From NCBI GenBank assembly GCA_002794775.1, contig NBAY01000131.1, forward strand, positions 1 through 64,000: 64,000 nt of DNA, written 5' to 3'. This document shows, piece by piece, positions 45 through 32,939 of this stretch. The notes under the pieces are model-generated. The model was not told where the DNA came from. It saw nothing but the letters and a program-made list of their open reading frames with translations, and searched no databases. Both the position numbers and the translations under genes were made by a program. Each line of letters starts with the position of its first letter. The stretch's first letter is position 1. Source of the stretch: Porodaedalea pini. Its lineage: Eukaryota; Basidiomycota; Agaricomycetes; Hymenochaetales; Hymenochaetaceae.

Positions 45-57
45 TGACCCTCCCCTT
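45..57 (-). other. Element A polypurine tract
   Basis: On the minus strand a purine run (AAGGGGAGGGTCA) directly precedes the TGTCA start of the 3' LTR, the expected place for the plus-strand DNA primer. It abuts the pol stop codon at 57-59. Confidence 0.75.
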
Positions 58-6120: not shown

Positions 6121-6131
6121 AGTTTCGACCT
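6121..6131 (-). other. Element A self-primer binding site
   Basis: On the minus strand AGGTCGAAACT lies immediately after the 5' LTR end. It is perfectly complementary (11 of 11) to AGTTTCGACCT at 6300-6290 inside the LTR, which sits 35 nt after the start of the TATA box and so at the predicted mRNA 5' end. No tRNA-like TGG primer site is present. This matches Tf1-type self-priming. Confidence 0.75.
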
Positions 6132-11289: not shown

Positions 11290-11420
11290 ACCGGTGGGGA
11301 CTTCATACTCCGGAAAACCATCGACGTCGTTCGCATCTACGTGTTGTACAGGCGGTTGGTTATATTTTAACGAGTCCGGATTTAAAGTCCCTTGTTCTTC
11401 CCGGTCAGTCGCCCCGATGG

Positions 11421-12500: not shown

Positions 12501-13192
12501 CGCGGGTTCGGGTGTTGAAGATTCTGGGGGAGTCGGCGGTGAGGGATCTCTGTTGGTCTCGCGGTAAGGACCCGGAGTCGGTGGTAGGTTAACCGTAGAT
12601 GTTGACGGTGCGGGTGACGATGGGGTAGCTGGAGGCCACCTTGCTCTCCTTCCTCGTTCGTCTGACGAATACCAGCCGTGCCGGATTTCACTCCACCAGA
12701 TGTCGTGAGTGACGCCGCTGTTGTTGGTCGCGACGTAGCCTGGTCGATCTGGATCCCAACGGGCTGAGGCAGGAAGGGCCCGTCGCTGTTCGTCGGTGAG
12801 ATCTATCTTGACGTTGGCGGTGGGACAGGGATCGGTTGCGTGTTCGATCCGGGGTTACGCCAACGTTGAGCGGGTTCGTCAGCGAAGTTGATGACGAGGC
12901 GGTAGGATCCGAGTGAGATTACAAACGAGATTGTCGTCGAAGTTTGGACTCGTCTGGTTACCCACGTCCACGTTAGGTGCGTGCTCCACCAGAGGCTAAT
13001 TCGTAGAGCCAGGGTCGGGAGATGTCGGTTGATATGTTTACGTAATACACGAACGTCCGAAAACGTCCGGGCAGGGTTGAGGGTTGTCGTTCAGGGGGTT
13101 TACACGTCAAATCCGTCGAGGGGAGCGCTCCTCTAGACTGAGTGAAGGCGAGTCGACAGCGACGACGTACGCTGGGGATGAGCCTGGGTGGG
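12501..13192 (-). other. Element B untranslated leader
   Basis: About 690 nt between primer site and gag ATG. No credible coding region seen; element C keeps a homologous leader at 15770-16464. Confidence 0.7.
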
Positions 13193-13203
13193 GTTCTGCT
13201 TTT
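13193..13203 (-). other. Element B self-primer binding site
   Basis: AAAAGCAGAAC on the minus strand, one nt from the 5' LTR end. It is the exact complement of GTTCTGCTTTT at 13410-13400 in the LTR, 33 nt after the start of the TATA box. Confidence 0.78.
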
Positions 13204-13204
13204 A

Positions 13205-13627
13205 TGTTAGGCGGAAGCCCGGGAGACGGCTCGGGCTGGGCAGGCCTCGGCTGACTGTCGTCTGGGACGTGCTATACTCGAGCGTAGACTCGGGACACGC
13301 TTACTCAGGCTAGGTCGACGCGGAGGTAAGAGGATTAATACAAGACTAGACTAATACAAGGGGGACGAGTCTCACCTAGGTTGACGCGGAGGTAAGAGGA
13401 AAAGCAGAACAAGGAGTTCATGCGATTCCTGAGACCTTATATAGCGACGACCGTGAGACTATATTACCTAACATTACATAACGAGTGGGAATGGAACGAA
13501 TGAAGGTCGTGTAGAGGGAGTGTGGGAAGTGATTGGAAAGATGATTAAAGATAATGAAAAGGAGCAATTAACAGAAACGAAAAAGGCAAAGGGGAAATAA
13601 AGAAAAGGGGAAGTTCGAGTCCTGACA
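13205..13627 (-). repeat. Element B 5' LTR
   Basis: 423 bp, near-identical to 7375-7795. Carries a TATATAAGG box at 13435-13443 and the predicted mRNA start near 13410. Confidence 0.92.
13435..13443 (-). promoter_or_regulatory. Element B LTR TATA box
   Basis: TATATAAGG on the minus strand, 33 nt upstream of the 11-nt segment complementary to the primer site. Confidence 0.65.
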
Positions 13628-13631
13628 ACCC
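13628..13631. repeat. Target-site duplication of element B, right copy (ACCC)
   Basis: Second copy of the ACCC found at 7371-7374. Confidence 0.8.
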
Positions 13632-14711
13632 CCAGCGAAGGTCAAGCTTAGTGATGTATTTCGCTTTCTTGACTTTGTCGACGAGTTTGTCTATAAGGGG
13701 AAGGGGATACTTGTTCTTGACTGTACCGTCATTAAGCTTTCGGTAGTCTTGGATCGGGCGTAGGGACTTGTCGGCTTTCTTGATAAAAAAGAAAGGCGAG
13801 GCCATTGGGGATATTGACCTGCGTATACGACCAGATTTCAAGTTCTCCTCAAGGAAATCCTTCAGCGACTCCTGCTCCGTTGGTGTTAGTGGATAGATCT
13901 TGCAGTCGCTAGGTTTGAAGTCAGGTTTTAAGTCAATGACATGGTCCCATGGGCGGTGTTCCGGCAGTTTCTCGAATCCCTTCTCTGAGAAGACGTCGGC
14001 GTAATCGTCGAGGTACGCGGGCCAGGACGCCTTGTCCATTCGCATCCCACTCACCCTCCTCATCTGCTCCACTGCCTCCTTTACTTCACCCAGGTCCTCC
14101 ACTGGCTCCCTTTCGATCGCACATTTGCTCAGGCAGCGAGTAAAGTCGAGCGTACCCGTCTTCCAGTCGACCTCTGGGTTGTGCCGTCGAAGCCAGTCAT
14201 ACCCCAGGAAGATGTTAGATGACGCCAGTGAGGTTACCGCTAGGACGATCCGTTCCTTATGGTGACTGATCGTAAGTTCAATGTCAACGTACTCCTCGAT
14301 CAACCCGGCTTCGTTGTGTGTACCGTCGGCATTGAGTACCACAAGGGGTCGGATATAACGCTTTGTCTTTAGCCCGTACCGTTCAACGAATCTCACGTCA
14401 ATGCACGATCCCGTACATCCCGAATCTACGAGCGCGTGTGCGTCCACCTCCCTCACTTCACCTTCTACGCTGTGCCCGGCGTTCAGGAGAAGGTCCAGCT
14501 GGCGTCCGCCAGTCCCTCTCATGAACAGCTGCTCATACTCCTCACTTCCTTTCACACCGGTGGGGGCTTCGTACTCGGGAAAACCATTGACGTCGTTTGC
14601 ATCTACGTATTGTACAGACGGTTGGTTATATTTTAACGAGTCCGGATTTGAAGTCCCTTGTTCTTCTCGGTCAGTCGCCCCGATGGCTACGCCTGACCAT
14701 TCGCAAAACCC
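13628..14711 (-). pseudogene. Element C pol, N-terminal part (protease and start of RT)
   Basis: Open frame homologous to the start of element B pol: protease with DSGCTGSC, then RT up to LDLRWG, where element B is inserted. This half shows no internal stop. It starts in the -1 frame within the end of gag, where GGGTTTT at 14705-14711 is conserved. The gene is broken by insertion B and by damage in the downstream piece (6582-7374). Confidence 0.88.
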
Positions 14712-15769
14712 TGCGAGTCGACAACCTCTTCGTCGTTCTCTCCCTCCTCAACGTATTCTTCCACTGTCGACCTTCGAGTGTCTACGACTTCCTCGAAGGC
14801 CGATTCTTTCATCGCTCCGAGCTCATCGGCAAGGACGCGACGTTCACCTGGTGCCATCAATTCCAGCATACGCTGGATGATCGGTTTTGCCTGCGGGCAC
14901 TTGTCCTTAAAGTGGCCCAAACCGCCGCAGATCCAGCACGCGCGTCGGCGTTGCGCCTCGTTCATCGAAACGTCCATCGGCTGACCAGCGCCTCCGAAGG
15001 TGATTCCAGTCGTGTCGCGTTTGTCGATGTGCGGGGCCACCGCCTGTTGGCACGCAGGGGGTGCTTGTTGGGGTGTCGGGCGGGGCGTGAATGGTAATGT
15101 CCTGCCTCGTTGGATCGCACGAATCTGTTGTTCGCCCCGGTCGATTTCGACGGCTTTCTTCTTCCATGCCTCATACATCATCGGTACTGGTGTTGACCTC
15201 AACACCCCATGGACCACCTCAATGTTCATTGCGCGCTTCAGGCGGTCGCAAATGACGCTATCATCCTTCAGCTCTGCTGCCTTGATGATCACGTCGAGAT
15301 CCTGGAAGAACTTGTCGGCAGAGAGGTCCTTCTGGACCTTGTCTCGGAACTTCTTCAACACCTTCTCCTTCCTGTTCGGGTCGTCAAAGGAGGCATCCAG
15401 TCGTTCCTGAAACTTGGTCTAGTCATCCGTGAAGCTCACGACGCCGCCCGTTGTGAATTCCTGGACATAGTTTTGTGCCCACGTCAACGCATTGCCACCC
15501 TTGAGGTAAGAGAGGGTGACATAGATTTTGCTCGACGACGAGGGGTACCTCGTGGGGTTCGCCGAGACAAAGAGAAGGACTTCGCGCTTGAAGTCGAGGT
15601 AATCGTCGCCGCCAGCAAATTCGTGTGGCTGGGCGACGTCAATTGAGGGAGCTGGGGCTTGGGCTGCAGGGGCATTTGTTGCCGCGCGGGTGAAGGCGGC
15701 CGCTACGATCACCGCAATTTCCTGTTGCTGCCTTTGGGTAAAGCCCTCCGACATTGCTGGTACGGGCAT
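14687..15769 (-). pseudogene. Element C gag, one nonsense codon
   Basis: Colinear with element B gag over its whole length, with zinc knuckle CWICGGLGHFKDKC. A TAG at 15419-15421 replaces a Trp codon (element B reads SWERFQ at this place), splitting it into 15419-15769 and a downstream part listed from 15361. The frame is otherwise kept. Starts at an ATG near 15754-15769. Confidence 0.85.
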
Positions 15770-16464
15770 GTGTGTTAGGCGTTCAGGGGGCGTCGGCGGC
15801 GACGAGTCTCTGTGGGGCGTTCGGTATCCTCCTGGTTCACTGGGAAGGATGACTGATGATGTCGAAACGGTAGGGGACGATGGGGCACGAGGGGTTCGAG
15901 GTGCCCACCGAGTTCTTTCGCCTGATGGGTCAGTTGAGTACCAGGCGTGTCTAATGTCACTCCACCAGAGGTTATGGGTGACGTGGTTTCTATCGTCGGC
16001 TACGTACGACTGTCGTTCGGTGTCGTAGCGCGACGAATGAGGGAGAGCCCGCTGCTGTTCCTCGGTAAGATCTATGTTGACTAGACCGGAGGGGGAACGG
16101 GGAGGGGTTGGTTGTCCGGATGAACGTTACGCTGGCGAAGGACAGGTTCGTCGGCGAATTTGATGACCAAACGGAAGGAGGCGGCCGAGAGCACAATTGA
16201 CAACAATGTCGAGGACTGTACACAGTGTGTTACCCACGTCCAGGTCAGATGGTTCCTCCACCAGAGGGAGAGGCGGAGAGCCAGGGTCGGGAAAGGTCGG
16301 GTGTAGGTTTACATAATACACGAACATCCGAAAACGTCCAGGCAGGGTTGAGGGTTTGTCGTTTAGGGGTTCTACACGTCAAGTCCATCGAGGGGAGCGC
16401 TCCTCTAGACCGAGTGAAGGCAAGTCAACAGTGACGACGTACGCTGGGGATGAGCCTGGGTGGG
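15770..16464 (-). other. Element C untranslated leader
   Basis: Homologous to the element B leader (12501-13192). No coding region seen. Confidence 0.65.
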
Positions 16465-16475
16465 GTTCTGCTTTT
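16465..16475 (-). other. Element C self-primer binding site
   Basis: Same 11-nt AAAAGCAGAAC (minus) as element B, one nt from the LTR; its complement is preserved inside the LTR at 16672-16682 despite divergence elsewhere in this LTR. Confidence 0.72.
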
Positions 16476-16476
16476 A

Positions 16477-16865
16477 TGTTAGGCGGGAGTCCGGGAGACG
16501 ACTCGGACTGGGCAGGCCTTGGCTGACTGTCGTCTGGGATGTGCTATACTCAAGCATAGACTCGGGACACGCTTACTCAGGCTAGGTCATCGCGGAGGTA
16601 AGAGGATTAATACAAGACTAGACTAATACAAGGGGGACGAGTCTCACCTAGGTCATCGCGGAGGTAAGAGGAAAAGCAGAACAAGGAGTTCATGCGATTC
16701 CTGAGACCTCATATAGCGATGACCATGAGACTATATTACCTAACATTACATAATGAGTGGGAATGGAACGAATGAAGGTTATATGAAGGGAGTGTGGGAA
16801 GTGATTAAAAGAAAAGGAAAAGGAAAAGGGGAAATAAGGAAAAGGTAAAAGTTCAAGTTCTGACA
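16477..16865 (-). repeat. Element C 5' LTR
   Basis: 389 bp with TGTTAG and TTCTGACA plus-strand ends. Clearly homologous to the B LTRs, but shorter in U3 and with many C/T and G/A differences. It marks the point of insertion into element D. Confidence 0.88.
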
Positions 16866-18594
16866 CAACTCCAGAAGGATCGATACCTATTGCGATATCA
16901 AGGATCACAGACCCATACCCGGAAACGTGCCCTTCAACTCCAGAACAGCTGAGAAGGACACCAACTCCACCCTCACGCGTACCCACACTGGCTCCACCGA
17001 CTTTCCATATCGTGGTGCCACCAATAGTCAGAGCAGTCATGGCTAATTCTACCGCACAAGGATCGAGCCAAGGACCTTCACAAGCCCCACCAATGGCACC
17101 ACCAACGCAACCCATACCCAACATAGCCAATCCTCTTCCAGACCTTGCCGAGTCTAGAAATCTCCCGATCACCGGACCAAATCCTCCGGTTCCAGGAGCA
17201 ACAATGCCGAACAGACACGACAAATGAGCACCAGCAATGAATGCCGATGTAGAACCAGAAGGGATCCCATGATTCTTCGAAGAGGTTAACATCTTAGGAT
17301 CGGATACAGGAATCACCGATCTACAGAAAATCAATTGGGCATGTTACTACGCACCGGTACATGAGGAGTTACTATGGTCAACTCTCCCACAGGCATGACA
17401 AAACAATTTCGCGTCATTCAAAACAGCTGCCCTAGGCTTCTATCTGGTGGCAACGATAAGATACACTTATGGAGATCTAATCAATTTTGTCGCCGAGAAT
17501 TCCAACAAGGTTTTGATGAGCACAGCTACCCTGGGAGAATACCATTGAAGCTTTATGCGTATTACATCATATCTAGTTCAAGAAGGAGTCATTTCGGATC
17601 TAGATCAAAAGCGGTTCTATCGAGAAGGTCTAAACTGGCTCACCAATCAGCATCTCGAACAACAACTTTGGTTGGTTGACTTTTGACACCCAGCTGGCAT
17701 TCCTTGGGATATACCGGTACTATACAATGAACTCAACCGACTTATAGCAGGAGGAGTCCTAGTAACTGGTCCTGGGGTGCAGCAAGGATACGCAGTACTG
17801 CAGTATGGAACATTCGGGATACCTGCAGTGCCTCCATATTTTACTCAGTAACACGTCACTGCAGCATCTGGACCATACACACCGAACCCCATTAAACGAG
17901 AGGACACAGAACTGAGCCTGCTCACACACATGGTATCAGATTTACAAGCTGAGATACGGGATCTCTGGGGCAAAAGGAAGGAGGATTATCGAAGGCGAGA
18001 CTATGATGATCAGTACACTCGAGATTGACCATATGCCCATAATGAACTGCGGGAGTACCAGTGACCCAATGATTACAGACAGCCACGCGACGAATACAGG
18101 GCACCACCGAGAGGCCCACCCCCAGCCAGAAATATGCAGGTAAGGAATACAGGACCCCGAACGTGTGCCATGTGCTACAGCACCGCACACCTGTTCAGAG
18201 ACTGTACGATCAGGGACACGTTACTGAACCGACGATTACTGGCCTTGGATGCACAAGGATTTGTTGTGATGCCGGGAGGAACATGACTACCACCAGGACC
18301 ACAAGGCTCTTCTCTACTGGATCGAATGAACTTGTACTATCGAGACCACCCGAACGAGGTCCCTCCGGGTACGACTCTCCCAGTAGATATGACAGCACTA
18401 CAAGATCCACCACCGCACCAAATGGCAAACCTGTTCGATATGTACTATCCCACCATATCAGGACCAAGTATGTATACACCAACCCAGCCAGGTATGGAGG
18501 AAGCCCACATCGAAGAAATTCAGGACGAATACGTAGTGGAAGGAAGAAAGGTTCAGTTTGACGATACAGGCAATTCTCATGGACAGCAGAGATG
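16866..18594 (+). pseudogene. Element D gag with CCHC knuckle, ten in-frame stops
   Basis: In frame 2 the sequence reads as a Pro-rich gag with a CCHC knuckle (CAMCYSTAHLFRDC, 18164-18205). It is interrupted by TGA at 17225, 17270, 17396, 17546, 17684, 18026, 18062, 18284 and 18592, and TAA at 17849, with no frameshift. Its N-terminus is missing because element C was inserted at 16865. Open frame continues beyond 18594 with repeated YRTQNDLPD-like units, so 18592 may be another acquired stop rather than the true end. Confidence 0.75.
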
Positions 18595-19434
18595 ATCGGC
18601 GAGACTGGCAAATATAGGAAAAGCCAACTCTCCCTCACCTAAGCACCCGATGAAACCAGTGAAAGAACGAGAGGGACGCAAACCAGCTATGGACTCGGGC
18701 GTACCAGTGTAGAGTTCCGGCGAGCGGCCAACCACTGCAGATCCCTCTAGAGGCCATCCGTTGCACATTCCAACAGCTATTGACACGTACCGGACTCAGA
18801 ATGATTTGCCCGACGCGTACCGGACACAGGATGATTTGCCCGACATCACATCAGCGGATCACTAGGAAGATCCCCCTGGCAATTCAGGATGTACCGGAAA
18901 GCTTATGTCATCAGAGTCAGTTGGGATGCGTACCGGAGATCTGCCCGATGATGGGTGATGACTCACCGATTGGAGGATCTCAGTTCCGGTGGAGCTGCGA
19001 TATGACCAGATGATGGACTGATGCAAATGGGGAAGTTGTCGCATGGACAGGTTTTCTTTTGAATTTCTATGTTTCTCTTACATTCCGAATGTTTTCTCTC
19101 CGACGCTCTATGTTTCACCCAGTATGCACATTATACTCACTTTGGAATAATTTTCCTGTAGATAGATCTCTTGCACCTTGTATTTAGGGACTTCCCTGTT
19201 GTAGGTAGCAAGGGAGGAAATACTACTGCAGAGTTCCCCTCAGATAGGGCAGCTTCCGTGCGTGCAGTTAGTCTCCACAACAGTTAGTTTCGTGGCAACC
19301 TTGTCTTCAGTCTCATCTCTTGTCTCGTTCTCATTCTCGTCTCTGCTATCGCTATTGTCTCGTACCGGAGTTTATATCTCGCTCGTTCCAGCTCTGTACC
19401 GACACTCACATCGGGTCCAGAGCACCTTACAGTA
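18595..19434 (+). other. Element D gag-to-protease spacer
   Basis: 840 nt with no intact gene. It holds imperfect 30-bp direct repeats built on CGTACCGGAC (18786-18845, with a further partial copy near 18929), then an AT-rich and C/T-rich stretch. Confidence 0.55.
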
Positions 19435-20462
19435 TTGACACGTACCAATGCGTACCGACGCGTACCGACGTGTACCGACGTGTACCGAGATTTTTCCCGC
19501 ACTCATACCAAGGCTTTAATTACTTCAAAACTCAACAGAAACACGTCCCCAAACGAACTACCAATCCTAAACAACCCATACACAGGATCTACACCGGAAA
19601 CTGAAATGGTCAAAGGAAAGGAGACAGAATCGGCCGAGCCCAAAACAACCAAAGAATTGGTACCCAACTCTATTCCACCGAGCGAGCCTATGCAAGTCCA
19701 TGTAGCACCACCACGGGAAAGGACGGAACCAAAGCCTGGACATCCCAATCCAACAATAGACATACAGAGGCCTCAGTTCAAATACAACACACCAGCTAAT
19801 GACCCCGCAATGGTCGATGCAGTATTTTGCCGATTCTTGGATTCCACAGTGTCGATATCAGGTCAAGAACTGTTGGCAACCTCGCCGGAGGTCAGACAAA
19901 AGTACAAGGAAATGATGACGGCAAAGCGAAGTCCGATAAACCTTGAAGAGGAAGGCACAGCCATGTACTCAGTAGGACCCAGGCCAGGATCGCCAGATGA
20001 AACAACGGAAAGGGAACCAATTGCACCAGTGACTGTACCAATTCGAGTCATCAATGTATGGCTGGATGGAAAAGTCGAGGTAGAAGGACTACTTGACACT
20101 GGAGCTTTGTTTATAGGGCTTTCTCGGGATGTATGGAAACACCTAGGATCGCCAACTCTAAATAACGAACGAATCATTATCAAAACAGCAGACGCGTCTA
20201 GAACCCAATTGCTTGGACTAATACCACGACTCAGGATAGGACTCGGAGGATTCTCGGTACTCGTACAAGCACAGGTCGTACACCCAGCACCATTCGACAT
20301 CCTACTCGGCCGACCATTCCTCGCACACTGCAAGGCTCGGTTGGTGGATATAGACATCGATGACCAGGTACTGGAACTAATCCACCCGGTAACGGAAGAA
20401 GATGTATCAGTTCCAACTTGAGAACGAACACGACGAAAGCAATCAGCTGAGGACGAGGATTT
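19435..20462 (+). pseudogene. Element D aspartic protease region
   Basis: Open to TGA at 20419-20421. The N-terminal half is Lys/Glu/Pro-rich; the C-terminal third is a retroviral-type aspartic protease with LLDTGALFIG at about residue 218 (DTG catalytic triad) and a flap-to-ILLGRPFL segment near 290. After the TGA the frame stays open for 14 codons, then shifts at a T5 run (20460-20464) to the pol frame. So either the protease was once fused to pol, or a single T was gained or lost. Confidence 0.75.
19441..19490 (+). repeat. Five 10-bp tandem units (consensus CGTACCGACG)
   Basis: Units at 19441, 19451, 19461, 19471 and 19481 differ by one to three bases. They are translated within the start of the protease frame and share the GTACCG core with the 30-bp repeats upstream. 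Confidence 0.85.
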
Positions 20463-23400
20463 TTGATAGTCAATGAATCGGTACAATATCGACGAGACGA
20501 ACCAGAGACGCAACCATGCTATACCACGAATACCCTGGAATCAGACACAGTACATATTTCTTTTGACAGGCAGTCTATTGAAATCACCATCACAGAAAAG
20601 GGAGGTGTAAAATCAAAACAAAATATGAAAAACAACAAAACCCGAACGAACGGCAGAACAGGACTATTCTCCATTAATCACCCATACGATAATGAATCTC
20701 TAATTCCTCGAACAAATCAGACCCGCCAAACGACTCAGCCATTCTACAAGTACAAAAAGGTTGCCGATCGTATAAAGCTGGTTCCAACCACACTCCCCGA
20801 AGAATATCGAATCACCAGGACACAACACCCCGATCCTCTGAAGGACCTTCCGGAACTGCCGACCCACCCTCCACCATTCTCACCTGGGAAACGACTCACC
20901 CAGGAACGATACGACGAAATAGACATAGATCCGGCCAGATTCCTACTCCCTGAAGAAAAGGATCTCGCGTGGTGGGTTATTCGGACACAGGAAATGGCAT
21001 TCGCATGGGACGAAACAGAAAAGGGTGCACTTGACTATGACTACTTCACTCCAGTTCTTATCCCAACAATCGAGCATATTCCATGGGTACTGAAGAATAT
21101 TCCCATCCCACCGGGAATATTCGACAGGGTTGTTGCAATTATCAAAGACAAAATCATGTCCAGCGTATACGAACCATCAAACTCATCGTACCGATCCAGG
21201 TGGTTCTGCGTAGTAAAGAAGGACGGAAAGTCGCTGAGGATAGTCCACAATCTTCAACCTCTAAACGCAGTCACGATATGAGATCCATTGGTACCATATC
21301 CAACAGAACACATCGCCGAGTCTTTTGGTGGCCGATCCTGCTATACAACCCTGGACTTATTCGTAGCATTCGACCAAAGAAAACTCGCAATATGAAGTAG
21401 GGACATAATGACATTCCAGACGCCACCAGGAGCATTCCGACTCACATCGATTCCCATGGGGTATACAAACTCCCAGCAAATCATGCACACCGATGTCACA
21501 TTCATCTTGAAGGACGAAATCCCAGACGTGGTGTTCCCATACATTGATGATATACCCATAAAAGGGCTGGCCATGCGATACGAGTTACAGGACGGATCAT
21601 ACGAGACCATCCCAGAAAATTTGGGAATCCGCCAATTCATATGGGAACACCTAAACGACGTCAACCGAGTACTCCAAAGATTCAAAGTAGTTGGAGCGAC
21701 TCTGTCCGGGAAGAAGTTGGTACTTGCTGCACCTGAAGCCGTGATAGTCGGCCACACCTGCAACTACTCAGGACGAGTCCCAGATGAAGCACAAATCCAA
21801 AAAGTCATAGACTGGCCTCCTTGTGAAGACATTACCGATGTTCGATCATTCCTCAGAACTGCAGGAGTCCTCAGGCACTTTATCAACGACTTTGCTCAAC
21901 TGGCATATGACCTGAACCGACTCACCAGAAAAGACGTCCCCTTCTCATTCGGAAAACTCAAACAGTGATCGATGGACCAACTCAAGAAGGCAGTCGCCGA
22001 GTCTGGAGCCATCAGACCAATCGACTACAAATGCGGGAGACCAGTCCACCTCTGTGTAGATTCGTTGATTCGAGGATACGGAGCAATTCTCTTACAGATC
22101 GGAGAAAATGGAGAATGATTCCCAGCCCGTTTTATGTCTGCAACATGGAATGAAAGAGAGCAGAACTACTCACAGCCAAAAGTAGAACTGTTCGGCCTCA
22201 TGAGGGCCCTCCACAACGCACGAATCTATCTAATAGGACTGGACCACTTCTACATTGAAGTTGACGCCAAGTACATTAAAGGCATGATCAACAACCCAGA
22301 TATCCAGCCAAACGTGACGATCAACCGGTGGATCACTGGAATCTTATTGTTCCACTTCACAATTATCCATGTACCAGGCACTCGGCATACAGGCCCAGAC
22401 GGACTCAGTCGATGAAAGCGAACAGACACTGACCCTCCAGACAACGAAAACTATGAGGAATGGATCGACGACCAGTATGCTTTCATATTCATAGCATACA
22501 CTGGAGACATTCCTCCCGCTACTGACCCTCCCACCATTCCCCAGACAGCTGCAGCAGAATCGGCCGATCAAGAGTTGATAAAAATCAAGGAGTTTCTCAG
22601 CGACCCAAAGAAACCAGAAGACATGACAGACAACGAATTTTGACACTTTGTAACAAAGGCAACTTGATTTTTCGTCGCAGATGGACAACTCTGGAGGAAA
22701 CGGTACTCGGGACCACACCAACTCATACTCGCATGAGATCACCGATTCTCAGTCATGCAGTCAGCACACGACGACCTGGGACACAAAGGATTCTTTTCAG
22801 TACAACTACGAATCCACGATCAATTTTGGTGGCCCATGATGAGTTCCAACATATATTGGTTCCTGAAGACGTGTCACTTGTGCCAGACTCGGCAATTCAC
22901 TCATGTACGAATCCCACCAAACGTTCCAACACCAGCACCACTATTCGCCAGGGTACACATAGATGTGATGCTCATGCCCAAATCAGGGGGATTCAGGTAT
23001 ATCGTCCAGGCAAGAGACTTGCTCACAGGCTACCCGGAATTCCAACTCTTACACGCTGATAACTTGAGATCGATCGCAAACTTCATTTTCCAGGACATCA
23101 TATGCCGATGGGGCTACGTCCACGAGATCATATCAGACAACGGTCCATCATTCAATGGTGAAGTAATCAGGATGTTGGCAAGATACGGAGTCCACAATAT
23201 CCGAATCTCCCCCTACAACTCGAGAGCAAACGGAATCGTAGAGTGACGCCACAGGGACCTTTGGGAAACACTGATGAAACTTGCCGGGAACGACGAAGCT
23301 CGATGGTCACAACACACATACCATGCCATATGGGCTGAGAGGATTACGATTCAGAAAGCAACGGGATATTCACCATACTACATGGTCCATGGAGTCCAGC

Positions 23401-23978
23401 CGATCCTTTCATTCGACTTGGCTGAACAAACGTACATGTCACCAGTATACACATTGAAAGTATCCCAGTCAGAACTACTCGCAGCACGAGCAAGGGCACT
23501 CCAGCATCGACCAGAAGACTTGAAACGAGTACACTCGGCAGTCATGCGCACTCGCTTCAAATCAATCCAGCAATTCGAAAAACACTACCAAAACACGATC
23601 CGAGACTACGACTTTGGCCCTGGAGCCCTGGTTCTGGTTCGAAACTCATGAATCGACACGGAACTAAGCCAAAAAGCCAAACCCAAATACCTTGGACCGA
23701 TGGTAGTTATTCGCTGAACAACTGGAGGATTGTACATTCTCGCAGAACTCACAGGCACAGTCTTGGCACTACGATACGCAGCCTTCAGAGTTATCCTGTA
23801 CCACCCACGAGCAAACATATTGACCCCAGTCACCCAGATAGTGGAGCAAACCGACTCAGAACTCAACGATCTCGCCAACAAACATTCAAAAATCGAAGGG
23901 GAGGAGCTCGGTGCCAAGGATCGGCCACAACCAACAGAAATCCTCAACACCGACTCTGGAACCGAATCCGAATCATGA
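20463..23978 (+). pseudogene. Element D RT-RNase H-integrase, eleven in-frame TGA codons
   Basis: A single frame of 1,172 codons with no frameshift and no TAA or TAG, but with TGA at 21279, 21393, 21966, 22116, 22413, 22641, 22665, 22734, 23244, 23649 and 23715; it ends at TGA 23976. RT is recognised by FCVVKKDGKSLRIVHNLQPL, GAFRLTSIPMGYTNS and YIDDIPIKG; RNase H by SATWNEREQNYSQPKVELFG; integrase by a zinc region (CHLCQTRQF) and the DDE core (IDVMLMPKSGG, IISDNGPSFNG, NGIVE). Most TGA sites stand where Arg is expected from context. Clearly a Ty3/gypsy pol, clearly dead as written. Confidence 0.88.
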
Positions 23979-24194
23979 TACCCCTTATTCTTTTTGATAT
24001 TCGTTCTCATTCCATTTCTTTTCACACAATAAACCCCTACTCTCAAACTTCGAAATGGCGAAATACACGAAAAACAATACCCTACCGAGCCTGGAAGGAA
24101 AAGCCGAATCTTGTACTTCCGTCGTAAAGCACAGTTAACGCGGTACCAACATAGACTAAATTCCCTTAAATAAATAACAAACACCAAAACTACC

Positions 24195-26325
24195 CTATTT
24201 TCTACCCTTCCCTTTTCCCTTCTTCTTCTTTTCCTTTTCTTCCTTCTCCTCCTGTTCCTGAACAGTCCGATAGTTAATGAAAGATTCCTTGTCAAGGAAT
24301 GGCATAGGCGGCATCCAGTCCTCAACCTCCTCGTATTCGCCGAGACGACACGTAAGCTCATTGACACGAGCCTCATACGCCTCAAGACGATGACAAATGG
24401 CAGCCTGGCACTTGCGAATCGACACGCAAGACTCGGTGACATTCCTAGCCAATGCCCCGACCAGGACATCGACAGAAGCCACGTCAGAGTAGTCGGGCAC
24501 GTCCCCAAACTGCCAGACTGCGCCACCGATACTGATCGGGTCTGCCATGGAAAGCACAAGAGGAGCGAGCTGGGTACCACCACACTGCCCACGGAACCTC
24601 TCGAAGACACAGCGCACCTTATTCCACGAACAGCGGGTGCACCGCCGACTCTTGGGGACACCATCGCATGACGTGCCCGTGACAATGCAAGTGTCGCAAG
24701 TGAGGGCAAACTGAACAGTCCGCCCTAGGTGTACCCCACCTCTGAGCAAATCTGGGTCTGGGCCATCAGAAATGGCCTCTTCAGGATTCGCATCTCTCGC
24801 AGAGGACGCACCTGCAGCATGCAGAACCTTGGATGGACCAGGATGAGAAGGTCCTTCATCGCCGCTGGATTCAACCACAACCGGCTTTTGCTTCGTCCCA
24901 GGCTTCATAGGAGGGATGTTAGCTGCCACCACCTCAGAACGCGTGCGCAAACCACCAACCTACACGGGAACAGTCAACCATGAAGATCAGGATTGGTACA
25001 GAAAGGAATGTTCACCTTCGTCACCTCACATGGTATCTTCGTGGATGAGGTGCTTCCGCTGACTGTCGAAGGATCAGTTTTTACAGTTCCAGCCGGCGCA
25101 GCCAGGAAAGGAGAGGCAGAAGTCCTATGAGGGGGCGTGGCAGGCCCACCAGTACCTCGATGAGACACGGCACTCGCATCCGAACCAGCTTGAGGCAACA
25201 ACGTGGGAGAAATGACCACCCCGCTTTCTGCTCCCGAACGTGCAAGGACAGGACGAGGGTGAGGCTGACGTGTACGCGATCCACAACAGGGCAGAGACGG
25301 AATCGACTGAGTGGGAGCAGAAGGGATCGCAGACGAAACCGGCAGAGGAGGACTGACCATACATTGGAGTCGGCCCTGGAGCTCCTCATCGGTCACTGTA
25401 GGATACAGCGCACGCAATGACTCACGCACGCCCCTCAGCTTTGCCGTGCGCTCCTTCTTTTCCCGAGCCTGTTTGGCCACCAGGAGATCTGTACGCTCAA
25501 GCCAGAATCACGCCTCCTCCACAGCCTGTTTGGCACGCTCAGCGTCCTCACAAGCCCAATGCTCTACCCTCTCCTGGGCCTCAGCAGCAGCACATGCATG
25601 CTCGGCAGCAACGAGCTCGCGTTTGCGCTTACACTCAGCCACCTTCTCCTCCTCCTCAGCAATAAGGGACCGGAGATGCTTGGGCAGCATCTCCTCGGTC
25701 GCATTCTCCACCGCCTCCTCAGCCTCAGTCCAGAACACATCCAAAAGGATGTCCATCGTGGTAAAAGAAATATGGGTGGCTTTGGCGCACTCGGAAACAC
25801 CATCCCACGCGGTAGAAAGGGAGCACTAGAAAAGGTGTATCAGAAGCAAAAACAAGAAAACAAAAAAACAAGTGGTGCACCCAAGTAGCCCACACATACG
25901 CCATCGCCTCCTCGCGAGCCTCTTCACTCGACTTCTCGAGATCGTCGAGAGCCAAGTTGAAGTCTTCCATACGTGACGAGAAAGGATCATGCTGGGCGAG
26001 ACTCGGCAGGACAGACTCGGCAGGGGGAACTCCAACTTCCCCGGTGGGTTCCCCCTCTCTGCCCACTTCTCTGCCCAACGAGGATGACGGTAGCTGCAAT
26101 GGACGTGGGAGATCCGCGCCGACGAGCGCGCCTCCCATGTCTCAGTTGCCGTCGTCAGTTTCCTGCGAAAAACCAGGGGCCGCTGGCGTGTGATTGCCAG
26201 CCCCCAACTTCTCCTGTGGCGGTGTCAAAGAACCCCCCCCCCCATCCTTGGGAGACACGGGGGTGCACGGGACAGTATCGGGAGTTGTAGCGTTGTCCAT
26301 CGAATGGGTAAGGTGAGACGGAGGA
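24195..26325 (-). pseudogene. Antisense gene in element D with Zn(II)2Cys6-spaced cysteine cluster
   Basis: Proposed three-exon gene: 26325-25896, 25825-25016, 24959-24195, with introns of 70 and 56 nt. The middle part is a Glu/Ala/Lys-rich likely coiled coil (from MDILLDVFWTEAEEAVEN on). The last exon encodes Cys residues spaced C-x2-C-x6-C-x8-C-x2-C-x6-C (24698-24609), which fits the fungal binuclear zinc cluster spacing; the protein ends in a Lys-rich tail. Damage: an 11-G run at 26233-26243 puts the start in the wrong frame by one base, and TGA occurs at 26142-26144 and 25506-25508. It converges with pol, 216 bp apart. A DNA-binding or regulatory role is only an inference from spacing; another zinc fold is possible. 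Conceptual joins were not verified. Confidence 0.55.
24609..24698 (-). other. Cysteine cluster of the antisense gene
   Basis: Encodes CDTCIVTGTSC followed after eight residues by CTRCSWNKVRC. Six cysteines with the classical Zn2Cys6 intervals, followed by basic and aromatic residues. Confidence 0.65.
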
Positions 26326-27068
26326 CATGGTAGTAAAAAGTAGAGGGGGACACGTTTCGAAAACTACGATGATCTTTACCAACAGGAATCACGCCCCCAC
26401 GTTACCGGACCGGAACAAGCGCCGTGATCGCACTCAAGAAGCACAACGTGGAACCCAGTCATTTCAAGATCACCAAAGCGCCCGAAACGGTTCCCAACGA
26501 TCACACACCTCAAAAGCCAATCACACGCAGATCCAGACCACACCAAATACAGCACGAACCCACTGATCACTCACAACAAACCCAGGCACACACCGAACAC
26601 CAGCAGCTACCTGCAAGCCCGCTCCTACCAAAAAGGGACCCCGAGGCACGCAACACACAAATACTCAACAGAAAACGAACACCAAAGAAAATAACTACGC
26701 CGAACCAGGACCACCAAACAAAAATCACAACCGGCAATACAGAGACACGGACCAGTACCAAACACACGAAATACGAAACAGTGGACTAAAAAGACATGCA
26801 AATCTGCCGATCGACCGGCTGCCGACCATGAGAAAATGACACCATCGCTGTCATGAATCACCCACCGAAGGACCAACTAAAGCATGCGAATGAATCACCC
26901 AAAACATGCAATGAATGCGAACTCCGCCAACTGACGGCATGACCAATACAGAGAGGTCCACCCAATACAGACACACAAACAACTCAGGCAACGCAACTGT
27001 CCTTAAAAAGACACAACATTACTGAAAGCGACAAAAAGAAAAAGAAACAACATCCGACCCTGCCCACA
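26326..27068. other. Divergent spacer between two accessory genes of element D
   Basis: About 740 nt of A/C-rich sequence between the start of the antisense cysteine-cluster gene and the start of the sense ORF at 27069. No coding region is evident; it could hold a bidirectional promoter, but no clear motif was recognised. Confidence 0.5.
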
Positions 27069-27946
27069 ATGGAAAGTACAGACATTACCCCTCCCCACAC
27101 GATTGTCCTCAAGGGCATGGCACGCTGCATGCCCAACCCAACACCCGGCAACCTTGCACTGGCCAACCCTCGCCCGACGGGGTCTTGCAGATAGTCGTGT
27201 TCGACCCGGCAACGACCTCATTCGCCAAGTTCGCAGCAGAACTACTGTTCGCATTTGATAAGCTCACGCCCACAGACCCGACTCTGATATACGTGGCCTA
27301 CACATTCTGCACACCCGAAATACAAGAGCGACTCTTGCAGTCACCTGCACTTGCTGGAGGTTCGTGGTCTCAATTCTGCACTGCAGTCGCCATAGCCAGC
27401 CCTGATTGTGAGGGGCTCACACAACTCGTGTACGAAGAAGTATACCACATGGTGTTCAGACAGATTGTGAGCAGGAAGGCGACCTCCTATGAATCAGCCC
27501 TGACCCTATCTCGGTTCAACGCTGCAGCAACGGTGTCCTACATCCAACTGGCATACCTCAGCCAACTGTACGAAGCCCGGGAATCGCTGATTTCTGCAGA
27601 AGCTGAGCAGGCCGACTTCGCAGCAATGCTCGAAGACGCCAAGCAGGAGTGTACAGCATGCGAAGCACAACAGTCGGCCCTTCAGGAAACAGCAATCTCG
27701 ATGACCCACCTCGCCAAAACCGCTCAGGAACAAGCCATCAAAGCCCACAAACTACTCTCACAGTTAGTCGGTCAACTCAACAAGCACCACTTTGTACCGA
27801 TCAACCTGGGCGAGCACATGAACTTGATCACGTTGTGGAACGACTTCAATGCGACATTCGCAGCTGAGTATGGAAGGATCGCACAGGAAGGATCAGCTAT
27901 GACGGATGGGGAGGCTAAAGCTGAACACCCGGTGCATTTCTCTTGA
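27069..27946 (+). pseudogene. Element D accessory ORF 1, unrecognised, frameshifted
   Basis: The ATG at 27069 opens a frame (MESTDITPPHTIVLKGMARC) that switches by one base near a G4 run at 27178-27181 to the long frame 27185-27946. The continuity of the protein across the switch (PRPTG to VLQIVVFDP) suggests one lost G. The body is Ala/Leu-rich; the C-terminal half (from ESLISAEAEQADF) looks helical and coiled-coil-like, with a cluster of Cys (ECTACEAQQ). I do not recognise the family. It has the same orientation as pol and no similarity by eye to gag, pol or env-like proteins. Confidence 0.5.
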
Positions 27947-28243
27947 AACCCCCCCTGACTCAAACGCCTCATGTTACATTAGGCAAAATAGAGTACCCCT
28001 CCATTCCTTTAATAACAAAGAACCCCATTTTTGTTTGACAACAGACACTGATCCTCTCTATTTTACTTTCTCTCCGCCCCCAAATTTTTTTTTTCTCTTA
28101 CACCGAACATTGCACTAATTAATAACTCCGAGTCTCTATAGAATACCCCCTCCTTTTTGTTCATTTAGAATCACCCGCCCTACAATATCCCCCTCTCGAA
28201 TAATTCAACTTTGTTCTTCTTCACTTCTACCCCCTCACCGACC

Positions 28244-28795
28244 ATGCGTTCAGACCGAACCAGCGCCGAGTCTTTCTATGACAACCAAATCCTATGCCCG
28301 GATGACATACGCGGGGTTCACAACTGGTCGATATCATTCACTCTCGCTGTCACACGCCATCACTCGCATCAGGCCACCCTCGAGGACGTCCTACGCCACT
28401 CCGGATCTCACCAGCGCTTCTGGCACTCAATCGCCGAGCCTGGCATGAAGGTGCATGAGTTCTTCCTGTGCCTGTACATGGTGATCGATGTCCAGTTCTG
28501 ACCCTGACTGACCTTGATCAACAACCACACAAAATATGTCATTAATCAAGGCCTGGAGCTGCCAGTGAATCAGTGTCTACATTCGGCAGTGACACACGAC
28601 CTGATCCGGATCACAATTATCCCATGGCACCTGGACCTCCAGACGAGCATACACCACCCAGCCCCATCAGTCCAACTCAAGAACCTCCGTGACACGGTCA
28701 CGCAGCAAATAGCGCACATCATGAAACTCCAGGGTGTGATTTCGGCATTGATCGGTGAACCATCAACCTCTTCTTCTTCTTCTTCACACCATTAA
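28244..28795 (+). pseudogene. Element D accessory ORF 2, unrecognised, two in-frame TGA
   Basis: ATG at 28244; one frame to 28795 interrupted only by TGA at 28499-28501 and 28505-28507, consistent with two CGA codons lost. It reads as a small soluble protein of about 183 residues with a His-rich part and a Ser-rich end (SSSSSSHH). No domain recognised. Position after ORF 1, in the pol direction, suggests it belongs to element D. Confidence 0.5.
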
Positions 28796-28901
28796 AAAAC
28801 CACAGAATGCACCGAACCTCGCCCATTACACATTCTTTAATTTCCAAGTCAACCACTTCTCATGTACACCGCAAACACTTTTTTTCTGGCCCCCTGGGAG
28901 A

Positions 28902-29667
28902 TGTAGCGATTAACCATCACCTACGCGCCAGCCGAGTCTTTCTCCCCTCACTTACACTACTCCTTTGAATCCCTTTACCGGCCGCCAAACTTTACCATTT
29001 ATTCATTCATAATCAGCGGCCGACTCTTCATTATAATTCTTGGTATGGACACGATCAGACGGAGGGATGTCGCACGAACTCGATCAGCACATGGACAACC
29101 GACTCTCGTGGGGACAGGTGGAAGGAATTAGGCGAGTAGGACAAGGACGTGGGATACAGGTGTGCAGTGGTGGGAGATGAAAGAGCAGGTTGGGGACTCC
29201 AACATCACTCCACGACGATCGGCTGCGTGATGTGCGCAGACCGATCGCCGACTCACTTTCACATCCATTCACACAGACTCGGCCGAGTCTTGCACCGCTT
29301 TCTCTGCTTCAGTTTAGTATAAGTTTGCAGTAGTTTGTACAGACAGAGATAGGGAGATAGGGAGATACGAGACAAGTACAGAGACAGACAGTCCCCTCTC
29401 CACCTCTAGACCGCAATCTACTACATGCATTACTATGCACTACTCGCCTGACTCTCATTCTGAAAACAGTATACACTGACTCTGTCACCAACTCTCAGAA
29501 CTCCATCACCCAATCACCGAACACCCTCGGCCACTGCCACAAGTGCCGATTCTACCCGCCTGAGTCTTGGTCCAACCGGAATCCTGCAGGTATCCGTATC
29601 GCCGAGTCTTCATATCTCGAACCTCGCTCTACTTAGGTTGTCCCTCTCGGTATACCGAGTCACCACA
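28902..29667 (+). repeat. Possible 3' LTR of element D
   Basis: Starts TGTAGCG after a purine-rich CTGGGAGA and ends CACCACA, giving TG...CA ends; no coding sequence; several copies of GCCGAGTCTT. The 5' LTR is not in the window, so the identification rests on position and termini only. Confidence 0.3.
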
Positions 29668-30585
29668 GTTCCCCTTGGGTCGATCATGAGCTGTAGCCTG
29701 AATTGCCCTTTGGATTAGAAGAGTCTGCACCCCTACAACACAAGCCCTGTGGGCATCTCAGCTGTGTCCTTCACTGACAAGAATGGAATTCACAACTGAA
29801 GAGCTGAATGGAAGTGAAATCGGAATCTACTCTGGAAAGTCAATTAACACATACTGTGGGCATTAGTGGACTAAGGACTCAAGTAATAAACATCCAGTCT
29901 TTCAGAAAATCTGAGACTGGGTGGTCTAAACGGTAAATTCTGCCGTTTATTCACATGAACTCTTAGAAAACGTAAATCGAGCTGCTCCACGGCAAGGCCT
30001 AGCTTGATCGTGAAGAGTTGGCTGCAGATGTCATGAGGAAGGCTTTTAATAGTGGCAACGTTTCTGACGTGGAACCTGACCCGTTTGTCGTATCAATCTT
30101 ATCGTGCGCTAGGTACTGAATGTGATCGACGCCGGGAATTGGGATCTTCGACTTGATTCTTGATCCACGTGATTTTCCGGCCATGCAACCAGGACATTGC
30201 AAGAGCATAGCAAATATTATGCAATGCTCGGTATGGAACCCTATGAGTCTCACGATCATTTCAAAGCACTGAAACCTAGTCTCCAACTCAGAACACATAT
30301 ATAGCCAGAAATGGTTTAGGTCATTGCCACGCCTGACCTTCGTGCAAACGCGTTCCTAAATGGAAACTGAATATGTATAAATGCACACAAAGTATCCTTT
30401 GCCATTGCACCTTTGCTCGCACGTCTAAGCAGGTCGTCAGCCAATTAGATGGCCTAAAGCCTACGTTATTCTTGATATTAATGATGCTTTGATGTAGCCA
30501 TCGATGCACGCAAACTTGAGAACAGAATAAAAGCCGGCTATATGAACCTCAGCGCATACCAACAAGCACACGTAGAACCACAAGC
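29668..30585. other. Intergenic, no gene seen
   Basis: About 900 bp between the transposon cluster and the first host gene. A 99-codon minus-strand open frame (29999-30298) has no recognisable domain and no neighbours that suggest it is used. Confidence 0.6.
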
Positions 30586-31301
30586 ATGGCAAATGAGAGG
30601 GAAAGAACTCCGTACCCAAAGTTTTCAAAGGCGTATTCAAGGGAAGAAATACGACCTCCGAAGTTGAATAGCAGCAGCACGGCCTCATCGAACGTAAACA
30701 AAGAAGAGACAAGTAAGACCTTTCATTTTTTACTATTAATGAAATTTCCTTAACAAAAGATTTGTCAGTCGAACAACCTTTCACGAAAAATCCTGCTAAG
30801 GGCAGCGCAAGGGTTTATAGTGCCCGTTTAGACAAGGGAAAGAATTTTAAACTCAAGAGTTATTACGAGACCGCAGGCGTTACGGTTCTTGTTTCTGAGG
30901 AGCACCGAGAGCAGCGTAGGGAGCTGTATGGGGAAAACAAGAAAGATTTTACAGAAGATGAACTCAGGAAGCACAAAATCATCACATACACCGCAGGGCG
31001 AGGTAATATGCTGGTCTATATAGATAAGAAATCAAAAGAGAAGCGTCCGGTAATCCCGCCGAAAGACCCGAATGTAGACCCGGAAGACGACCAGTCGAAA
31101 ATGTGGAGAGTCAGCGTGGTGAGTTACTAGTCAGCTTTGCTTGTGTGTATCTCCGACGAGATACTGACCTGATGTCAGTCGTTCAACAAGGACGTTTACG
31201 ATGTTGCAGAATTACTTTATAACGACATCCGACTTCTCTTGAACAAGGCCGAGGACTGTGTCAAGGACACAGATTACGTTAGCTTGGATAAGTTTAAGTG
31301 A
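30586..31301 (+). CDS. Hypothetical protein, three exons, 199 aa
   Basis: Exons 30586-30712, 30769-31118 and 31179-31301; introns of 56 and 60 nt with GTAAGA/CAG and GTGAGT/CAG ends. The total is 600 nt with consistent phases. The protein is strongly charged and Lys/Glu-rich, with a compact middle (GRGNMLVYIDKKSKEKRP) and a helical C-terminus (DVAELLYNDIRLLLNKAED). No signal peptide, membrane segment or known domain recognised. The clean exon structure makes a real gene likely. It is the first host gene right of the transposon nest. Confidence 0.72.
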
Positions 31302-31549
31302 CTTGAACTGTGCTAGTAGTATGTAATTTAAGGAAAACGTATGGCACGACCTCTCCTCTGAATCTCATGATGACCGTCAACATCGATGCCCTGCCGATAA
31401 TCGATATTCTAGACTGGAGTGCACACAGCATATGTTGAGCTTAACAGTCAGTTGACTGAGAATTTCAAGTCCGAGTCGTGACTTACTCATACACGAAAGT
31501 GTCCGCGTCGAATAGCATACATAAGTAACACGCCGTAGCAGCACACGCC

Positions 31550-32939
31550 ATGCTCGGAGCAAGGAGCATCCTTCCCAGAGCCTCCACCCTCCTCCACTAT
31601 CTCACAACCTCCCGGCTTGTATCAGCACATCACACACCACCTACTCGAGCGGGAAACCTAAGGATGTCGTTCCCCAAGACTGTCAAGGCCATCGTCGTCC
31701 CTAGGCATGGTGATATTGACGTTATCGAGCTCGCAGAAGTACCCTTCCCGACACAGCAATCGGGAGAAATTCTGGTCAAGGTGCCGTCGTGTCCCTATTA
31801 TTTCGACTTCCAAGTGCGCATATACTCACGTGTAAAATATAAGGTGAATTATGCGGGCGTCAACTTCATCGACACGTACATGCGTAAGGGCCTCTACCCT
31901 GCCAAGTCGTTTCCATTTGCGATTGGACAGGAGAGCTCGGGTACCATCGTCAGCCTCCCGACGGACGCGGCCGTGCTCAACGACGAACAATACAAGAAGC
32001 GCAGTCTGGCAGTGGGCATCAAGGTCATAGCCGTAAGTTCCTGTATTTCGCCGTAATCCGAGGTGGAACTATTCGTACTAAAGAGTTGGATCGACGCATT
32101 GCCAGAGGTACACCGGGTCCTTCGCCGAGTACATCTCTGTGCCTTGGAAGGACGTGCACGCGCTCCCGCCCTCCATTGACCTGCGCACCGGCGCAGCGCT
32201 CCTAATCCAGGGGATCACCGCGCTCAGCTTCATGACGGAGGCGCACAACGTGCAGCAGGGCGAGACTGTGCTAGTGCACACCGTTGCGGGTGGGCTCGGG
32301 CTCATCTTTGCGCAGATTGCGAAGGCGCGCGGCGCGACCGTCATCGGGACGACAAGCACTGCGGAGAAGGCTGACCTCGCGCGGCGTCATGGCGCGGACC
32401 ATGTGATTTTGTACCCAACGGAGGACACCGTCAAGCGAGTGCTGGAGATCACGAATGGCGAGGGCGTGCATGCAGTGTTTGATGGCGTTGGGAAGGACAC
32501 GTGAGTGATCTTATACTCTCGCCGGAAAAGAGTATCGAAATGCAAGGGCTAATACTTGCTAAAGGTTCGATGCTAACTTTGAGCTACTCCGCCGAAAGGG
32601 CAGCCTTGTCTCTGTGGGCAACGCCTCGGGCGCCGTGCCTCCTTTCTCCCCATTGAAGCTTACTGGGAAGAACATCAAGCTCACTCGCCCCACGTACGTA
32701 TTCCCTCGACTCTCAGATTCTCTCATTCACACCCCCGTAGCGCCTTCAATTATATCGCCTTACCTGAAGAGTTCAGGTCCTACACGGAGGGCCTTTACAA
32801 GCTGGTCGAAAACGGAACAGTCAAAATCAACATTCATAAGGATTACCCTTTCACTGCTGAAGGCGTGCAGCAAGCGCAGGTGGACATCACAGGCCACTCG
32901 ACAACCGGAAAGCTTCTTATTAAGGTGTCGGAAGAGTAA
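31550..32939 (+). CDS. Quinone oxidoreductase (zeta-crystallin/MDR family), probably mitochondrial
   Basis: Five exons: 31550-31780, 31844-32032, 32106-32500, 32565-32693, 32741-32939; 380 aa, phases consistent. Zinc-less medium-chain dehydrogenase/reductase that reduces quinones with NADPH. Seen: substrate-domain signature NYAGVNFIDTYMRKGLYP, the Rossmann glycine turn in VHTVAGGLGLIFAQIAKARG, then GTTSTAEKADLARRHGADHV. The usual length is about 330; the extra 38 N-terminal residues are rich in Arg, Ser and Leu and look like a mitochondrial targeting peptide, with a second Met at 31664 offering a cytosolic form. Two acceptors end AAG rather than the usual CAG/TAG. Convergent with the ING gene. 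Confidence 0.9.

What the first reader, a model, noticed from the sequence alone, without database searches (positions are those of the whole stretch)
16866..29667. Gypsy-type element carrying three extra genes downstream of integrase
Downstream of the element D integrase lie three ORFs not found in standard Ty3/gypsy elements: an antisense, intron-containing gene (24195-26325) and two sense ORFs (27069-27946, 28244-28795). All share the TGA-rich decay of gag and pol, which argues that they aged together as one element of at least 12.8 kb. The antisense gene and first sense ORF are divergent with a 740-bp spacer, like a small regulatory module. This is the best candidate in the window for an undescribed system.
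Basis: partly seen in the sequence, partly recalled or inferred. Interest (0 to 1): 0.75.

Follow-up and report, generated by a model that had tools for sequence, protein, structure and literature searches.

The report
Fungal retrotransposon with three extra genes
A large jumping element in a fungal genome carries three extra genes behind its standard copying machinery, one of them running backwards, and all three have been kept by selection in two related element families, so they look like working parts of the element whose job is still unknown.

Summary
The window copy (16866-29737) is a 5'-truncated, CpG-decayed Ty3/gypsy element with its 3' LTR at 28902-29737. Copies with both LTRs are about 13.7 kb with 4-bp target duplications. 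A spliced antisense gene (24195-26300) and two sense ORFs (27069-27946, 28244-28795) lie between pol and the 3' LTR. Of 40 pol copies scored, 37 have the convergent antisense exon within 700 bp. A second family (E, 15.25 kb) has the three genes in the same order at 23-38% protein identity; a third (F) has at least an ORF2-like gene. Between subfamilies dN/dS is 0.09-0.25 for ORF2, ORF3 and antisense exon 3. The antisense protein has six invariant cysteines with Zn(II)2Cys6 spacing but no Pfam match. ORF2 and ORF3 have no recognised relative and no membrane-length hydrophobic stretch; a Gag origin was tested and not supported. Most likely the antisense gene is a nuclear regulator with its own divergent promoter, like plant Retand or Botrytis Boty antisense genes. 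That function is inferred, not shown.

The parts
16866..29737 (+). 5'-truncated copy of the gypsy-type element (family D), no 5' LTR
   Evidence: blastn against other copies
16866..18705 (+). gag region, truncated at its 5' end and with many in-frame stops
18706..19592 (.). 889-bp repeat inserted into this copy, interrupting the gag/protease region
   Evidence: absent at this place in C119, C93, C29, C21 and C43 copies; related sequence found elsewhere on C21 and C43
19593..20421 (+). rest of gag plus aspartic protease
   Evidence: Pfam gag-asp_proteas
21282..22736 (+). reverse transcriptase and RNase H region (coordinates mapped from copy C119)
   Evidence: Pfam RVT_1 (below its cut-off) and RT_RNaseH on the C119 frames; mapping
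   Evidence: Pfam Integrase_H2C2, and rve below its cut-off
24195..24959 (-). antisense gene, exon 3: six-cysteine cluster and Lys-rich C-terminus
24609..24698 (-). C-X2-C-X6-C-X8-C-X2-C-X6-C motif
   Evidence: all six Cys invariant D vs E; 13 of 13 further full-length D copies checked
24960..25024 (-). antisense gene, intron 2 (inferred GT..AG, 65 nt)
   Evidence: frames and splice-like ends; no transcript data
25025..25825 (-). antisense gene, exon 2: coiled-coil-like by eye; holds an in-frame stop in this copy
25826..25895 (-). antisense gene, intron 1 (inferred GT..AG, 70 nt)
   Evidence: no transcript data
25896..26300 (-). antisense gene, exon 1, from ATG at 26300; frame broken in this copy
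26301..27068 (.). spacer between the divergent antisense gene and ORF2; candidate two-way promoter (inferred)
   Evidence: layout; same layout in family E
27069..27946 (+). ORF2 (292 aa in intact copies; frame break near 27.18 kb here)
28244..28795 (+). ORF3 (183 aa in intact copies; two in-frame TGAs here)
28890..28901 (+). polypurine-tract-like sequence next to the 3' LTR, similar in families E and F
28902..29737 (+). 3' LTR (TGTAGCG...CCCCTACA)

Best explanation
It is a Ty3/gypsy LTR retrotransposon lineage (order gag, protease, RT, RNase H, integrase) with a conserved three-gene module between pol and the 3' LTR. Shown: the module is part of the element, recurs in order in many copies of family D, is present in the more distant family E (an ORF2-like gene also in family F), and ORF2, ORF3 and exon 3 of the antisense gene are under purifying selection. 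Inferred: the antisense gene is transcribed from its own promoter in the ~770-bp spacer, divergently from ORF2. Its introns have survived retrotransposition because the genomic (sense) RNA cannot splice them. Its protein, with coiled-coil-like middle, six-cysteine cluster and Lys-rich tail, is a nuclear nucleic-acid-binding regulator of the element's own expression or silencing. ORF2 and ORF3 are small soluble accessory proteins made on the sense strand, and ORF2 may pair through its helical C-terminal half.
For: Copies with both LTRs contain the module (C119, LTRs 98.9% alike; C93) and have 4-bp target duplications. 37 of 40 pol copies have the convergent antisense exon close by. 22 of 34 full-length ORF2 matches have no stop; ORF3 is open over all 183 aa in 6 of 10 complete copies, window not counted. 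Family E at C7:376996-392250 has the same three genes in the same order, with LTRs 94-95% alike. tblastn both ways links D and E: ORF2 36% (E=1.4e-23), ORF3 24% (2.7e-13), antisense exon 3 32-33% (1.2e-5 and 4.4e-7) (ORF3 was queried from the E side only). NG86 dN/dS for pairs with dS of at least 0.3: ORF2 0.17-0.23 (6 of 10 pairs), ORF3 0.09-0.20 (9 of 15), antisense exon 3 0.17-0.25 (3 of 6). Differences pile up at third codon positions (IN 0.67, ORF3 0.56, ORF2 0.54, antisense exon 3 0.48), against at most 0.41 at any position in the spacer, gap and LTR controls (ORF2 index corrected by hand; the IN set includes one 74%-identical sequence). All six cysteines are invariant D vs E and the motif is in 13 of 13 further D copies checked. 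E's antisense gene also shows a canonical GTGAGT..CAG intron before its coiled-coil-like exon.
Against: No function was tested and no transcript was seen. No Pfam zinc-cluster model matched the antisense protein and no convincing PDB relative was found (best E 0.32 and 0.12). Its motif lacks the basic residues that DNA-binding Zn2Cys6 proteins carry between Cys2 and Cys3 (pattern recalled, not from a call). Exon 2 shows no clear codon periodicity (0.38 after hand correction of the index; controls reach 0.41), and exons 1 and 2 were compared between D and E by eye only, so only exon 3 has sequence-level evidence of selection. Structure models of ORF2 and ORF3 were too poor to use (mean pLDDT 45-46). 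The copies used for dN/dS were chosen for open frames, and no pol benchmark was computed on the same pairs.
Confidence: 0.6

Rival explanations
1. The three ORFs are host genes or fragments picked up or nested by chance in one copy, not element genes.
For: The window copy is broken, contains one foreign insertion and lies among other nested elements.
Against: Recurrence with pol in 37 of 40 scored copies, location inside paired LTRs, presence in family E at low identity, and purifying selection.
Confidence: 0.02
2. ORF2 and/or ORF3 are envelope-like genes, which would make the element a fungal errantivirus-type element.
For: Sense orientation between pol and the 3' LTR is where env-like genes sit in some plant elements (PMC7264820, passages read).
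Against: Highest 19-residue hydropathy is 1.22 (ORF2) and 0.82 (ORF3) over D and E, so no transmembrane-length stretch is apparent (no dedicated signal-peptide or membrane predictor was run); no Pfam envelope family matched.
Confidence: 0.04
3. ORF2 (and perhaps ORF3) is a duplicated, diverged Gag capsid domain that modulates assembly.
For: By eye the N-terminal half of ORF2 resembles the Gag pattern, and hhalign's weak local match pairs part of the same stretch.
Against: hhalign probability 0.1 (per cent) and E 0.74 for ORF2, 0.0 and 0.87 for ORF3. In a shuffle test 87 of 500 shuffled ORF2 and 346 of 500 shuffled ORF3 sets scored as well. The profiles are shallow, so a remote origin is not excluded.
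Confidence: 0.08
4. The antisense region acts mainly as RNA: convergent or antisense transcription makes dsRNA that limits the element, and the protein matters little.
For: The gene is convergent with pol; antisense RNA roles are discussed for plant elements (PMC7264820, passages).
Against: Exon 3 has dN/dS 0.17-0.25 and six cysteines invariant between families whose exon-3 protein identity is only about 34%, so the protein itself is selected.
Confidence: 0.15

Closest known systems
Retand lineage of plant Ty3/gypsy elements (Grande, RIRE2, Retand)
   Same: Long pol-to-3'LTR region (2.9-6.6 kb in Retand; about 4.9 kb here) with antisense ORFs predicted to bind DNA and unassigned sense ORFs (PMC11963269, abstract and passages; PMC7264820, passages).
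   Different: Retand antisense ORFs carry TRP28 (PF04195), reported only from flowering plants. Here the protein has a six-cysteine cluster and no Pfam match, appears split by introns, and is accompanied by two conserved sense genes in a fungus.
Boty-like elements of Botrytis cinerea with the antisense gene brtn
   Same: Fungal gypsy element with an additional antisense gene (Zhao et al. 2011: only title and citation seen, through PMC7264820 and PMC8365987).
   Different: Different fungal group (recalled).
Retroviruses with antisense genes (HTLV-1 type)
   Same: Antisense gene with a proposed or known regulatory role (discussion passages in PMC7264820 and PMC11963269).
   Different: No sequence relation tested. 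Here the candidate promoter is internal, not in the 3' LTR (inferred).
Gypsy element with a related Gag in Sanghuangporus sanghuang (ACEPAF_5674)
   Same: Gag 48% identical over 73% of the query region.
   Different: Whether it carries the three-gene module could not be seen: the tool gives no genomic context.

Membership tests
Ty3/gypsy (Metaviridae) LTR retrotransposon | Paired LTRs with target-site duplication | tested here: met
   C119, C93 and C7 copies: paired LTRs and 4-bp duplications. The window copy itself has only the 3' LTR.
Ty3/gypsy (Metaviridae) LTR retrotransposon | Domain order protease, RT, RNase H, integrase | tested here: met
   Pfam gag-asp_proteas, RVT_1 (28.4 bits, cut-off 29.6), RT_RNaseH, Integrase_H2C2 and rve (21.1 bits, cut-off 32.6) in this order; retroviral integrases by PDB sequence search for E
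LTR retrotransposon with conserved additional ORFs between pol and 3' LTR | Extra ORFs in most copies at a fixed place and orientation | tested here: met
   second family
Retand lineage | Antisense ORF encoding TRP28 (PF04195) | tested here: not met
   No PF04195 among Pfam results at E up to 1
Fungal Zn(II)2Cys6 transcription factor | Six cysteines C-X2-C-X6-C-X5-12-C-X2-C-X6-8-C (pattern recalled) | tested here: met
   D: X2,6,8,2,6; E: X2,6,8,2,7
Fungal Zn(II)2Cys6 transcription factor | Match to the Pfam zinc-cluster model and basic DNA-contact residues (recalled) | tested here: not met
   No zinc-cluster match at E up to 1; the Cys2-Cys3 interval is IVTGTS in the window and VETGIP in E, no Lys/Arg
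Fungal Zn(II)2Cys6 transcription factor | DNA binding | not testable with these tools
   needs an assay
Envelope gene | Transmembrane segment | tested here: not met
   19-residue hydropathy only
Envelope gene | Signal peptide | not tested
   no predictor run
Gag-derived protein | Sequence or profile similarity to the element's Gag | tested here: not met
Boty/brtn | Homology of the antisense protein to BRTN | not tested
   brtn sequence not held

The most novel reading that the evidence does not exclude
An old lineage of fungal gypsy elements evolved a self-contained regulatory cassette: a two-way promoter drives, on one side, an intron-containing zinc-cluster-like regulator that only the antisense transcript can express, and on the other two accessory proteins of new folds. 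Antisense introns would then act as a lock, keeping regulator expression apart from the retrotransposing sense RNA. All three proteins would be new families without known relatives.
Probability: 0.35. Interest if true: 0.65.

Novelty: new variant of a known kind. Interest (0 to 1): 0.5.

Why it matters
Genes in LTR elements beyond gag and pol are uncommon, and the antisense ones described in plants have no shown role (PMC7264820, passages). Here is a fungal case with three genes conserved together over deep divergence. Introns that only the antisense gene appears to have give a direct, cheap test of which strand is expressed. It also warns annotators that these ORFs may be filed as host 'hypothetical proteins' or zinc-cluster factors.

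Tried and rejected
Considered and rejected. (1) UGA recoding in gag: the in-frame TGA in the capsid region of C119 and the window is not a stop in 3 of the 7 copies compared, so it is decay. (2) ORF2 and ORF3 as Gag paralogues: my first guess by eye; hhalign and a shuffle test did not support it. (3) Env. (4) Homology between ORF2 and ORF3: none found.

Led nowhere. AlphaFold models of ORF2 (10 rows) and ORF3 (6 rows), mean pLDDT 45.4 and 45.7, so no fold search was run. Protein database: ORF2, 0 of 1436 candidates; antisense residues 460-655, 0 of 1128; Gag, 2 of 2339. Not even this organism's own copies scored, so these misses say little about distribution in fungi; ORF3 was not searched there. 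IMG/VR: 78 stretches matched a pattern for ORF2, none a relative. The tRNA primer was not identified.

Literature. Searches (listings and abstract starts seen; 72 failed on a character), and passages found by search terms in PMC3411680 and PMC3248453, showed no fungal element with this three-gene set. The library lacks most subscription journals.

Row choices. One dropped piece (C45:14496-14609) changes the pol count from 36 to 37 of 40. In the ORF2 list, 35 of 60 have the antisense exon 3 within 2.8 kb; of the other 25, 7 lie at 3.0-3.6 kb, 12 farther off, and 6 have none on the contig in that orientation. I read these as insertions, truncations or fragments but did not check them one by one.
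Full report
What is there. The region is a copy of a gypsy-type LTR retrotransposon (family D) in an unnamed 53.3-Mb genome of 201 contigs. Comparison with other copies shows a 3' LTR at 28902-29737 and a missing 5' end: copies C119 and C93 have paired ~840-bp LTRs (98.9% alike in C119), and a length near 13.7 kb once a 1-kb insertion in C119 is set aside; C119 has ~0.85 kb of internal sequence that the window lacks. Target duplications are 4 bp: ACAG (C119), GCGC (C93), and GCGT for family E. Gag and pol carry aspartic protease, RT, RNase H and integrase domains in gypsy order. RVT_1 and rve fell below their curated cut-offs; the RNase H, H2C2 and protease models passed.

The three ORFs belong to the element. 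Same-genome searches scored 40 places each for pol, the antisense gene and the 3' part, the window and partial copies included (of 111, 83 and 211 candidates, so counts are lower bounds). Of the 40 pol copies, 37 are followed within 700 bp by the convergent antisense exon (with one correction told in Tried and rejected). Of 34 full-length ORF2 matches, 22 have no stop, and the 12 interrupted ones hold TGA only (10) or TAG only (2). ORF3 is complete in 6 of 10 full copies besides the window. One antisense copy (C134) was read through all three exons with open frames.

Decay. Most in-frame stops in the gag of the copies compared are TGA where the C119 reading has CGA. Over the pol 3' half, 68 of 310 CpG positions are changed in the window, 66 as expected from cytosine deamination, against 87 of 2290 other positions.

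A second and third family. ORF2 and the antisense exon 3 also matched C7 at 36% and 32%. The C7 element (E) spans 376996-392250 with ~1.44-kb LTRs 94-95% alike; a related sequence at C47 matches the flanks without the element, as an empty site. E carries, in order, integrase, an antisense gene with the same six-cysteine cluster, an ORF2 and an ORF3. Searches with E proteins recover the D genes (best ORF3 2.7e-13, ORF2 7.8e-26, antisense 4.4e-7) and further E matches on C47, C99, C82, C4 and C23, not each with all three genes. D and E proteins are 70-78% identical in three RT/integrase pieces, 57% in Gag, 26-38% in the module (23-34% in the alignments). A third family (F) at C113 has an ORF2-like frame (29%, 1.4e-6) just before an LTR start with a similar flanking purine tract; whether F has the other two genes was not seen.

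Selection. NG86 dN/dS for subfamily pairs with dS at or above 0.3 is 0.17-0.23 (ORF2), 0.09-0.20 (ORF3) and 0.17-0.25 (antisense exon 3); the remaining, closer pairs give 0.24-0.55, as expected for copies decaying after insertion. The copies were chosen for open frames, and pol was not run on the same pairs. Third-position excess appears in ORF2, ORF3, antisense exon 3 and integrase, not in spacer, gap or LTR controls (for ORF2 the printed index is shifted by one, the 0.54 column being position 3). Exon 2 of the antisense gene showed no excess beyond controls (0.38 against up to 0.41), a result against uniform constraint on that gene.

How it may work. The antisense gene has splice-like introns in D and E. 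Introns readable only on the antisense strand would survive reverse transcription of the sense RNA, so the gene must be made from a separate antisense transcript; the spacer between it and ORF2 is the natural promoter. The protein has a coiled-coil-like middle (by eye; no predictor run), a six-cysteine cluster and a Lys-rich tail, which fits a nuclear nucleic-acid-binding regulator. The cluster lacks the basic residues of classical DNA-binding Zn2Cys6 proteins (recalled) and no Pfam model matched, so it may work like, but is not shown to be, a member of that family. ORF2 and ORF3 have no membrane-length hydrophobic stretch and no detectable relative in the searches run; a Gag origin was tested and not supported.

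Known kinds. Plant Retand-lineage elements have long pol-to-LTR regions with antisense, probably DNA-binding ORFs (PMC11963269, passages; PMC7264820, passages), and Botrytis Boty has the antisense gene brtn (cited in PMC7264820 and PMC8365987; the original paper was not read). The present case is a new variant of that kind: different proteins, a spliced antisense gene, and two further conserved sense genes. I did not find it in print in the searches named, which cover only open-licence papers and were seen as listings.

Noticed in passing
window 18705-19593: 889-bp repeat inserted in this copy; related repeats lie on C21 and C43. Likely another mobile element, not classified.
   Followed up: partly
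window 1-16812: Nested gypsy-type elements of another kind with repeated LTR-like sequences (7387, 13219, 16491) abut the truncated 5' end at 16866; protease and RT matches on the minus strand at 13545-14747.
   Followed up: partly
window 31529-32504: Zinc-binding dehydrogenase-type gene (ADH_N, ADH_zinc_N) less than 2 kb downstream of the 3' LTR.
   Followed up: no
G000:C113:17630-32900 (L037 holds 31300-32900): Apparent third family: LTR-like copies 96% alike over the 242 bp seen, an ORF2-like gene before the 3' one, and no second copy of the coding part at the DNA level.
   Followed up: partly
G000:C29:200171, C2:1697588, C21:481370: In three copies the ORF2-to-antisense exon distance is almost the same but several kb too long (8512, 8486, 8524 bp), as if a similar insertion sat in the module. 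Unexplained.
   Followed up: no
L035 (G000:C47:13000-22900): The flanks of the C7 element match frames resembling another gypsy pol at C47, so one retrotransposon inserted into another; C47 serves as an empty-site relative.
   Followed up: no
L009 3044-3053 and L033 2941-2950: Shared TGGAGCCCAC primer-site-like sequence after the 5' LTR in D and E whose tRNA was not identified.
   Followed up: no
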